Source of the DNA: Pseudomonas sediminis
GTDB lineage: Bacteria; Pseudomonadota; Gammaproteobacteria; Pseudomonadales; Pseudomonadaceae
Assembly: GCF_039555755.1 (NCBI RefSeq)
Contig: NZ_CP154631.1
Span: 1,736,001-1,800,000, forward strand
Direction: 5' to 3'
Length of the DNA stretch: 64,000 bases
Shown here: piece after piece, positions 57,367 through 58,273 of the stretch
Numbering within the stretch: position 1 is the first letter of the stretch
Layout: each line of letters starts with the position of its first letter
The notes under the pieces: model-generated
Databases searched by the model: none
Seen by the model: only the letters and a program-made list of their open reading frames with translations
What the model was told of the DNA's origin: nothing
Position numbers and translations under genes: made by a program

Positions 57367-57475
57367 CGAATATTTGGGTGGAACACGAATGTTCTGAATA
57401 TTCGGGGCGCGGATAAAGAGGCAGATTTATTTTCAACCACTGGTGTTGTGATTCAATAAATCTGTCCCCTTTTCT
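57367..57475. repeat. Hairpin plus degenerate GGGGACAGATTTA repeat, copy 2
   Basis: CGAATATT (57367-57374) pairs with AATATTCG (57397-57404), with a nested GAACA/TGTTC stem inside. Then 57414-57475 repeats the 56658 element: a worn left arm (AAAGAGGCAGATTTATT) and an intact right arm (AATAAATCTGTCCCCTTTT), with ACCACTGGTGTTGTGATTCAA between. The reading frame of the next gene begins at the end of this repeat. Confidence 0.65.
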
Positions 57476-57488
57476 CTGCAAACTGCGG

Positions 57489-57794
57489 TTGAAACGTTCG
57501 GAATACCCGGAGACATTTGGTCATATCGATGGTGCTATTAAGAAGGGACACCCCTACATTGTGACCATTCAACGTGATACCGCTAAGCTGAACCGCAAAC
57601 TCAGTTTGAAAGATGTCAAGACCAAAAAAGGCAAGGATCGAGACGAATGGCCAATGGCGATGTTTAAAGAGGGTGGTAGCGGCGCGAGTGTCAAATATAT
57701 CGACCCTAGCGATAATCGCGGCGCTGGATCTAGCATTGGCAATGTCCTATCCGATCTTCCCAACGGAACCAGAATTAAAATCGAGGTTTATTGA
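57489..57794 (+). CDS. Orphan NucA/NucB-type deoxyribonuclease domain (displaced toxin tip)
   Basis: 101 aa from a TTG at 57489; upstream the frame runs straight back into the palindromic repeat, so no natural start or carrier is present. Recognisable NucA/NucB pattern: YPETFGHI, then KGKDRDEWPMAMFKEGGSGA (about residues 47-66), SVKYIDPSDNRGAGSSIGN, and LPNGTRIKIEVY. The acidic DEWP, glutamate of KEGG, and asparagine of DNRG correspond to the family's active-site region. Lacking the Rhs core, it looks like an orphan toxin cassette that could be recombined onto an Rhs protein. Its stop overlaps the next gene's ATG. Confidence 0.75.
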   Translation: MKRSEYPETFGHIDGAIKKGHPYIVTIQRDTAKLNRKLSLKDVKTKKGKDRDEWPMAMFKEGGSGASVKYIDPSDNRGAGSSIGNVLSDLPNGTRIKIEVY

Positions 57795-58273
57795 TGGAAA
57801 GTAAAACACAGTCTGTAGATTTATTAATATCCCACAGCCAAATTCAATTTCGTGCGCGCCATTTCGACGAGGCGTCTAGTCAATGGGGTAAGGTTAATCT
57901 AGAGCAGGGGGCGGTTCTGCATCGTGACTACGTTGTATTTGATCCTCTGCCTGAAGACGCTTTCGGTGCGAACGTGTATTTGAGCCTAACAAATAGTTTT
58001 GCTCTAGATGAAACTGCTCAGCGTTGTATCGTTGTGCCGTTTCACGTCACAAATCCTGCACATGTGGAAGTTGCATCCGCAACTGAAAAATTCAAAGTCG
58101 AACTGGATTTGGTAAAGCGTGACTATGCGTTGTACTTTGAAGTCTGTGAAGGCGACGAGATTTTCTACAAGATAACCTTGGTCCCGGTGGACGCAAAAGT
58201 CGAACCCAAGTACTTGCTAGATGATCCATGGGGCGGCGAGAAAGATCTGTCACTCGTCGAGGGCTTTCGATAA
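57794..58273 (+). CDS. ComJ (Nin)-like nuclease inhibitor, cognate immunity protein
   Basis: 159 aa, ATG at 57794 sharing one base with the NucA-like stop (TGATG). The segments DLLISHSQIQFRARHFDEAS, then VVPFHVTNPAHVEVASATEK, and KRDYALYFEVCEGDE line up with Bacillus ComJ (LSISYHQF..., VTVPFHVTENGIHIES, KGDYQLTCW). ComJ inhibits NucA in Bacillus competence. The same pairing here implies immunity to the adjacent nuclease domain. Spacing and coupling support a toxin-immunity unit. The likeness was judged by eye. Confidence 0.75.
   Translation: MESKTQSVDLLISHSQIQFRARHFDEASSQWGKVNLEQGAVLHRDYVVFDPLPEDAFGANVYLSLTNSFALDETAQRCIVVPFHVTNPAHVEVASATEKFKVELDLVKRDYALYFEVCEGDEIFYKITLVPVDAKVEPKYLLDDPWGGEKDLSLVEGFR

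What the first reader, a model, noticed from the sequence alone, without database searches (positions are those of the whole stretch)
57367..58273. Orphan NucA-type nuclease with a ComJ-like inhibitor next to an Rhs locus
The Bacillus competence pair NucA-ComJ (nuclease and inhibitor) appears here as a toxin-immunity cassette: a NucA/NucB domain with no carrier, its frame opening at the end of a palindromic repeat, overlapping a ComJ-like gene by one base. It suggests that ComJ-type proteins serve as general immunity proteins for NucA-family polymorphic toxins in Proteobacteria and that the cassette waits as a swap-in Rhs tip.
Basis: partly seen in the sequence, partly recalled or inferred. 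Interest (0 to 1): 0.7.

Follow-up and report, generated by a model that had tools for sequence, protein, structure and literature searches.

The report
Stranded toxin tip, palindrome-bounded immunity cassettes
A Pseudomonas genome keeps a DNA-cutting toxin tip with no delivery protein beside its intact antidote gene; the palindrome at its start marks boundaries along which Pseudomonas seem to swap antidote genes, a plausible clue to how such defence arrays are shuffled.

Summary
The window encodes a complete NucA/NucB nuclease domain (57480-57794) without a carrier, overlapping a ComJ-family gene by one base, and its open frame starts inside a palindromic repeat. In other Pseudomonas the same tip ends long Rhs frames and is followed by ComJ. 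"Waiting as a swap-in tip" is not supported here: searches of this genome found one 5'-truncated Rhs core and no type VI sheath gene, and the orphan tip keeps no core homology. It is best read as a stranded tip beside a usable immunity gene. ComJ outlives its toxin elsewhere too (8 of 14 unbroken comJ genes). The palindrome is the more interesting part: it is REPIN-like, its arms bracket RAYT-type transposase genes, it recurs in AT-rich immunity-gene arrays, and 45 of 88 homology breakpoints inside such arrays lie within 20 bp of its arms (shifted null 8.6%, maximum 21.6%). Cassettes including comJ occur in different orders in different genomes, with arms between them. That the transposase moves them is a hypothesis; homologous recombination at the repeats is at least as likely.

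The parts
54918..56192 (+). 3' fragment of a T6SS-type rhs gene (core end plus GH-E-like tip); its 5' part is missing
   Evidence: RHS repeat, RHS and Rhs_assc_core hits, GH-E below its cut-off; 54943-55817 is 92% identical to a 1514-codon open rhs frame of a same-species genome; only Rhs_assc_core hit in the genome
56205..56642 (+). TPR protein, probable immunity gene of the GH-E-like tip (role inferred)
   Evidence: TPR hits; a 79% identical gene stands just upstream of an orphan comJ in G623 (L095)
56661..56725 (.). palindrome 1, intact REPIN-like element (65 bp)
   Evidence: exact two-arm match; hairpin z -10
56810..57364 (+). DUF1963 gene, probable orphan immunity gene between two palindromes (role inferred)
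   Evidence: PF09234 26.1 bits, cut-off 23; relatives 35-44% identical in 10 of 395 other Pseudomonas genomes
57412..57474 (.). palindrome 2, partly decayed; the NucA frame opens inside it
   Evidence: inverted repeat I6 and direct repeats D2, D6 with palindrome 1; right arm exact
57480..57794 (+). complete NucA/NucB (Tox-ComI) nuclease domain, carrier-less tip
   Evidence: NucB active-site residues H, D, E, N conserved (frame residues 36, 76, 77, 100)
57794..58273 (+). ComJ-family immunity gene; a GAGG ribosome-site-like sequence lies inside the last nucA codons
   Evidence: PF11033 66.7 bits; one search prints the site
58377..58793 (+). probable orphan immunity gene of the ancestral tip
   Evidence: from 58404 the window resumes collinear homology with the gene that follows the rhs frame of same-species genome G460
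52350..54937 (+). IS21-like element that replaces the 5' part of the rhs gene (identity by recall, ends by eye)
   Evidence: two transposase-like ORFs and similar ends; not family-scanned

Best explanation
The pair is an orphan Rhs-CT/immunity cassette: a nonspecific DNase tip of the NucB type that lost its Rhs carrier, next to its ComJ-type inhibitor. It lies in a stack of four known or probable immunity genes (TPR, DUF1963, ComJ, and the gene belonging to the ancestral tip) left by successive tip exchanges at a T6SS rhs gene. That rhs gene and its T6SS were later cut off, most likely by an IS21-linked deletion. The tip probably is not made (no good start or ribosome site), whereas ComJ can be made from its own ribosome site and would bind and block NucA-tipped Rhs effectors injected by neighbours. 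The tip was cut off at a REPIN-like palindrome of a RAYT family. In Pseudomonas these palindromes separate immunity genes in such arrays and often coincide with the points where arrays recombine, so immunity genes appear to move as palindrome-bounded cassettes. Shown: families, carrier fusions elsewhere, truncated carrier, no sheath gene found, breakpoints at palindromes, reordered cassettes, RAYT genes bracketed by the same arms. Inferred: inhibition by ComJ, protection of the cell, silence of the tip, the deletion route, and what drives the exchange.
For: Families and active site. Same tip on long Rhs frames with ComJ behind it. Carrier truncated, one Rhs core hit, no PF05943 hit, while same-species G460 has one on the contig of its rhs. 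ComJ beside lost or damaged toxin in 8 of 14 unbroken genes. NucA tip nearly unchanged in protein (dN 0.017-0.038 against dS 0.93-1.45 in the four of five comparisons with a computable dS). Palindrome: (40 of 396 genomes; reversed control pattern 0), against 86, 93 (immunity families), (arms: 1 in 60 random 20-kb stretches; 45 of 88 breakpoints in array cores; array-specific centres, 0 of 2000 permutations; reordered cassettes; RAYT genes bracketed by arms).
Against: No expression or binding data. NucA residues are conserved, so the tip may have been stranded recently or may still be made from TTG 57489. ComJ's match to the solved inhibitor is weak by sequence, and its AlphaFold model was poor (pLDDT 52). 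No clear arm lies behind ComJ in the window (best 5 of 15 mismatches). Arms (up to 3 mismatches) lie near 1 of 5 intact NucA-ComJ carriers, and orphan comJ loci L095, L096, L098 and L100 have none, so palindromes explain only some strandings. 43 of 88 breakpoints in array cores are not at arms, and the other 98 of 186 unique breakpoints lie outside the cores. Breakpoints from related arrays are not independent.
Confidence: 0.75

Rival explanations
1. A swap-in reservoir: the cassette is kept so that it can be recombined onto an Rhs core and deployed.
For: Such fusion of an orphan tip was shown in Salmonella (PMC3967940, abstract and passages). The tip's residues are conserved.
Against: There the two genes share 522 bp at 95% identity; here the tip has no core sequence upstream. 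This genome gave one Rhs core hit, itself 5'-truncated, and no sheath gene. Transfer to another cell is not excluded.
Confidence: 0.08
2. An intracellular toxin-antitoxin module: tip and ComJ are expressed together and act on the cell itself.
For: Orphan Rhs tips of Salmonella are expressed from internal promoters and act as type II modules (PMC7043789, passages). Frame and active site are intact here.
Against: No ribosome site seen before the first in-frame start; promoter-like sites are not above shuffles (2 found, 4.8 expected in 56150-59130). The region before the DPxGL motif that holds the main Salmonella start sites is absent here.
Confidence: 0.12
3. Plain decay: all of it is debris of a deleted T6SS locus under no selection, and the palindromes are ordinary selfish repeats that land in AT-rich intergenic DNA.
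For: Carrier truncated, no sheath gene found. Palindrome loci are AT-rich (GC 0.463 against 0.619). RAYT genes are present in several arrays.
Against: ComJ stays unbroken without its toxin in several genomes. Nine AT-rich control stretches gave no immunity family among the 25 of 40 families listed. Breakpoints sit at palindromes more than shifted controls allow.
Confidence: 0.2

Closest known systems
Tox-ComI / Imm-ComJ polymorphic toxin pair (Zhang et al. 2012, PMC3482391)
   Same: Same two families, toxin then immunity gene, RHS among the carriers, proteobacteria; descent of the Bacillus pair from a toxin-immunity pair already suggested
   Different: Here the tip is carrier-less and stands at a palindromic element; the held part of that paper has no 'palindrom'
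Orphan rhs-CT/rhsI and cdiA-CT/cdiI modules (Poole et al. 2011, PMC3150448, authors recalled; Koskiniemi et al. 2014, PMC3967940)
   Same: Displaced tip plus immunity gene behind a main gene, usually without translation start; orphan immunity expressed in E. coli EC93
   Different: No core remnant, main gene truncated, no T6SS sheath gene found; boundary is a REPIN-like palindrome. PMC3150448 states that the mechanisms of these exchanges are unknown
REP/REPIN elements and RAYT transposases of Pseudomonas (PMC3390384, passages)
   Same: Inverted pairs about 60-70 bp apart; the same repeats flank a RAYT gene
   Different: Low copy (1-4 exact copies per carrying genome) and found in strain-variable immunity arrays, whereas the REPs counted there occur over 250 times and are lacking around many strain-specific genes
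Polyimmunity loci (Zhang et al. 2012)
   Same: Tandem, co-oriented, often unrelated immunity genes, variable between strains
   Different: Zhang et al. note adjacent XerC/D recombinases in several cases; here the cassette boundaries carry the palindrome, and RAYT genes occur within some arrays

Membership tests
NucA/NucB nuclease (PF14040; Tox-ComI) | profile match above curated cut-off, full domain | tested here: met
   32.1 bits, cut-off 23.8; full-domain match to NucB-type PDB sequences, E 7e-31
NucA/NucB nuclease (PF14040; Tox-ComI) | residues needed for activity in NucB (H53, D93, E94, N117 of B. licheniformis NucB) | tested here: met
   residues from PMC5758888 (passages) mapped by hand through the alignment; all four conserved
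NucA/NucB nuclease (PF14040; Tox-ComI) | DNase activity | not testable with these tools
   needs protein
ComJ / Nin inhibitor (PF11033) | profile match above curated cut-off | tested here: met
   66.7 bits, cut-off 25
ComJ / Nin inhibitor (PF11033) | fold of 4mqd | tested here: inconclusive
   sequence match E 0.34; model pLDDT 52, not searched
ComJ / Nin inhibitor (PF11033) | inhibits the paired nuclease | not testable with these tools
Orphan rhs-CT/rhsI module | tip found on long Rhs frames elsewhere | tested here: met
   L020, L021, L023 and G737
[quoted passage not shown]
   the main gene is a 5'-truncated fragment and the only Rhs core hit; so it is a remnant of such a locus
Orphan rhs-CT/rhsI module | remnant of core up to the DPxGL motif | tested here: not met
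   homology starts after it, at 57480; PMC3150448 reports cdiA-CT orphans lacking such sequence too
REPIN/RAYT system | inverted pair of short repeats forming a hairpin, dispersed | tested here: met
REPIN/RAYT system | same repeats flank a Y1 (RAYT-like) gene | tested here: met
   four whole-length genes (L244, L238, L235, L243) and one that looks frame-shifted (L239), each with an arm on both sides; PF01797 tested on the L244 gene. None found in the window
REPIN/RAYT system | conserved REP tetranucleotide and RAYT clade | not tested

The most novel reading that the evidence does not exclude
Pseudomonas arrays of toxin-immunity genes behave like cassette arrays whose boundary site is a REPIN-like hairpin, and the associated RAYT single-strand transposase (a family whose benefit to the cell is, by recall, debated) excises and inserts single immunity genes, or whole tip-immunity pairs, at these hairpins. 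It would be an integron-like exchange system built from a Y1 transposase, and would answer how orphan tip and immunity modules are shuffled between strains.
Probability: 0.25. Interest if true: 0.87.

Novelty: new variant of a known kind. Interest (0 to 1): 0.62.

Why it matters
Bacteria carry fast-changing arrays of antidote genes against toxins injected by rivals, and how orphan modules are exchanged was stated to be unknown (PMC3150448). Here a specific DNA element coincides with many of the breakpoints, in several genomes, and comes with a candidate enzyme, so the question becomes directly testable. It also gives RAYT/REPIN elements a possible useful role, and a sequence tag by which unknown small genes can be recognised as likely immunity genes. 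The NucA-ComJ pair itself is a modest addition to a published kind.

Tried and rejected
Half-domain idea: the Pfam hit covers profile 43-99 only, but the match to NucB is full length, so truncation inside the domain was rejected. Swap-in tip: rejected for this genome. ComJ as general NucA immunity: rejected (8 of 18). Known RNA in the palindrome: four Rfam matches with E up to 1, all far below their gathering scores. Plasmids: no match of palindrome 1 in 72,556 plasmid records at E 1e-3. Phages: 13 stretches in the viral collection hold the 20-base arm. Target-site duplication: none beyond one 2-base match in 33 copies. First control of 65 ORFs was judged unfit because only 25 of 78 families are printed; replaced by its 31 smaller ORFs (all 25 families shown, none an immunity family) and 28 ORFs from AT-rich stretches (25 of 40 shown, none an immunity family). 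A PADLOC scan of the 102 ORFs gave hits from very few proteins, one each (PDC-S15, HerA, Drt9, mad8), so the loci are not mainly phage defence by that library. ComJ model set aside for low confidence. The NucA model came late (pLDDT 72.7) and its fold search was not accepted, so no fold claim is made.

Caveats of selection: the 30 palindrome loci are those the tool returned of 55 exact copies in 40 genomes (55 is my sum of its table). The 20 wider loci come from 19 genomes: 5 with ComJ (G494, G436, G726, G401, G698) and 14 from the list, chosen, so they are not a random sample. ORFs handed to one search were 102 of the 126 listed: the own locus L136 (3) and 21 others were left out, 20 of these 115 aa or shorter and one of 365 aa (scanned, a peptidase); two of the left-out ones are pieces of a RAYT-like gene (L120). 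The immunity count of 16 of 102 is my sum over families (Imm22 5, Imm50 2, SUKH at least 2, Imm11 2, Imm8, Barstar, PoNi, SUFU and DUF2247/Imm38 one each). L020 and L021 seem to be the same records as G662 and G436:C22 (equal contig lengths), so they are not further genomes.

Full report
1. Observation. The NucA frame (57417-57794) matches PF14040 above its cut-off and the ComJ gene (57794-58273) matches PF11033 well above its cut-off. Against PDB sequences the NucA frame aligns over the whole domain with NucB-type nucleases (E 7e-31, frame residues 26-121). Stop TGA and start ATG share one base. Residues whose exchange abolishes NucB activity (H53, D93, E94, N117 in the B. licheniformis numbering; passages of PMC5758888) are present as H36, D76, E77 and N100 of the frame. 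The two cysteines at these NucB positions (a sole disulfide is mentioned in PMC4834066, passages) are V and F in the window tip and in L020-L024, while all 34 domains from 32 Paenibacillus-type and Cohnella loci that my motif script caught keep both (L059 has F at one site and was unread at the other; L052, L057 and L060 to L063 were not caught). This fits action in the cytoplasm rather than outside the cell; that step is inference.

2. Where the tip comes from. A scan of genome contigs gave 44 loci; the closest are Pseudomonas (96, 96, 91 and 83% identical). In P. agronomica, P. lurida and P. entomophila the tip ends open frames of 1461, 1459 and 1851 aa, with DPLGL (DALGL in P. entomophila) before it and ComJ directly behind. 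P. veronii has the same order but a 264-aa open frame, Comamonas (65% identical) a 245-aa one. Window homology begins at 57480, five bases after the palindrome's end and four codons before the stretch that aligns with NucB. So the palindrome stands where the carrier ends.

3. The local locus. In the one genome labelled same-species (G460) the rhs frame is open over 1514 codons, lies on the contig of a T6SS sheath gene and ends in another tip. The window matches it at 54943-55817 and again from 58404, so 55818-58403 is a stack placed between the core and the ancestral immunity gene. The stack holds a GH-E-like tip with a TPR gene, palindrome 1, a DUF1963 gene, palindrome 2, then NucA and ComJ. 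The rhs 5' part is replaced by an IS21-like element next to an hsdS-like gene (identities by recall). In the whole genome the Rhs_assc_core search gives this one place and the PF05943 search none, while its E. coli control rings.

4. ComJ outlives the toxin. In 398 Pseudomonas genomes, 14 have ComJ: 18 match rows, by my reading 16 genes, two of them broken. Of 14 unbroken genes, 5 follow an unbroken carrier-fused NucA (three with an Rhs core end, frames 1459, 1459, 1461 aa; two others of 3479 and 2032 aa), one is the window's, 4 follow a truncated or damaged NucA (L091, L092, L096, L100) and 4 follow none found (L090, L095, L098, L099). In L095 and L098 only the last bases of nucA remain, including GATCGAGGTTTA, the likely ribosome site of comJ. 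Conversely 18 of 398 genomes have NucA and 8 of these have ComJ beside it; of the other 10, six have one kind of downstream gene (about 211 aa, one cut short) and four another (204 aa). ComJ is therefore one of several partners. In a sample across the phylum 1 of 398 genomes has ComJ, the window's own. Pairwise dN/dS with the window is 0.012-0.041 for the NucA tip (4 of 5 computable) and 0.065-0.070 for ComJ (2 of 9 computable); dS is near saturation, so this only says that neither protein has drifted for long.

5. The palindrome. Arms AAAAGGGGACAGATTTATTT and its complement enclose a variable centre; 33 copies with exact 16-base arms measured 45-69 bp, with little conservation outside and no target duplication. 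The exact two-arm pattern occurs in 40 of 396 Pseudomonas genomes; the reversed control pattern shows 0. Around 30 copies the DNA is AT-rich (mean GC 0.463 against 0.619 in 20 stretches elsewhere in the same set of genomes), with short genes (median 142.5 against 298.5 aa). Of 102 ORFs scanned, at least 16 match immunity families, and single ORFs match toxin families such as GH-E, ribonuclease/Ntox47 and DUF637. None of 31 small control ORFs does, nor any of the 25 of 40 families shown for 28 ORFs of AT-rich controls. Fisher p is 0.016 against the 28 and 0.0004 against all 59; ORFs of one array are not independent.

6. Breakpoints. In 20 wider loci from 19 other genomes plus the window, arms with up to 3 mismatches number 2-31 per locus, against 1 in 60 random 20-kb stretches. 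The 76 homology blocks of at least 88% and 200 bp between genomes have 289 internal ends, 23.2% within 20 bp of an arm; rotated arms give 2.6% (maximum 8.3% in 1000). Collapsed to unique breakpoints there are 186; 88 lie inside array cores and 45 of these are within 20 bp, while arms shifted by 100-700 bp give 8.6% (sd 3.4, maximum 21.6% in 2000). Arrays that share their left flank (in G494 a filamentous-haemagglutinin type carrier) show the same genes in different order: G494 P-X-ComJ-Z-V-U, G436 P-ComJ-X, G401 ComJ-X, G726 X-W-ComJ, G627 P-W, G625 W-Z-V-U, with arms between all of these named cassettes. Arms are missing at some outer ends, such as U-Y and left-P in G627. In L092 the truncated NucA starts at a palindrome arm, as in the window. 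Centres of 61 palindromes are alike within a locus (0.69) and less so between loci (0.37; 0 of 2000 label permutations); by eye, orthologous arrays share them, as do the window, G568 and G637.

7. The enzyme. A 228-aa gene in the G619 array matches PF01797, the IS200-like Y1 transposases (7.8e-13). Relatives at 67-70% identity stand in L238, L235, L243 and L239 (the last apparently frame-shifted); with G619 that is 5 of 20 array loci, and L247 has a piece at a contig end. Each of the five has an inverted pair of the same arms, the nearest 62-132 bp before and 2-41 bp behind the gene. In 60 control stretches one distant hit (34% over 107 aa) passes E 1e-10. More distant relatives (39-44%) lie near ComJ or NucA in G426 and G429 and twice more in G619 (42-46%). 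This is the layout described for RAYT genes and REPINs (PMC3390384, passages). The window has no such gene; the rest of the genome was not searched for it.

8. Mechanism and rivals. The most economical model: repeats of one RAYT family spread within immunity arrays, and recombination at them, by RecA, by the transposase or both, deletes, inserts and reorders immunity cassettes and now and then cuts off a tip, as here. The ComJ left behind would still guard against NucA-tipped effectors; orphan immunity protection has been shown for an Rhs system in Serratia (PMC10539506, abstract and passages), and expression of an orphan CdiI in E. coli EC93 (PMC3150448, passages). Association and breakpoints are shown; causation by the transposase is not.

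9. Literature on novelty. A search for Rhs with ComJ gave two papers: Zhang et al. 2012, which states the ComI-ComJ pairing (passages), and a 2026 paper on strain-specific loci seen only as a listing. The arm sequences as text gave one unrelated paper; Rhs with orphan immunity and palindromic gave none. Four broader searches were seen only as capped listings (15 of 26 papers, 12 of 389, 12 of 22, 15 of 19,900); none of the listed titles and abstract starts describes such boundary elements. Most subscription papers are not in that library, so absence from print is not established. A paper on Neisseria T6SS (PMC10210955, passages) reports Correia elements and other inverted repeats near T6SS clusters and vgrG, the nearest parallel seen.

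Noticed in passing
window 52350-54937: IS21-like element (by recall) sits between an hsdS-like gene cut at its 3' end and the 5'-truncated rhs, suggesting an element-linked deletion of the T6SS cluster that the same-species genome keeps.
   Followed up: partly
G000:C1:278053-279671 (L082) and 130589 (L083): The other exact arm copies in this genome lie beside genes that look defence-related by eye (a 471-aa PIN-like protein; a 452-aa protein with a GIY-YIG-like end).
   Followed up: no
L239:9141-9775: A RAYT-like gene of G770 is interrupted by a full palindrome, with about 36 codons missing between the two halves.
   Followed up: no
L020-L024 and window tip against L025-L058: Rhs-borne NucA tips lack the cysteine pair that the Paenibacillus/Cohnella NucA/NucB-type domains keep.
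   Followed up: partly
window 58891-59023: A stretch 76% identical to G000:C1:3145802-3145936 that includes a terminator-like hairpin by eye: another small dispersed repeat.
   Followed up: no
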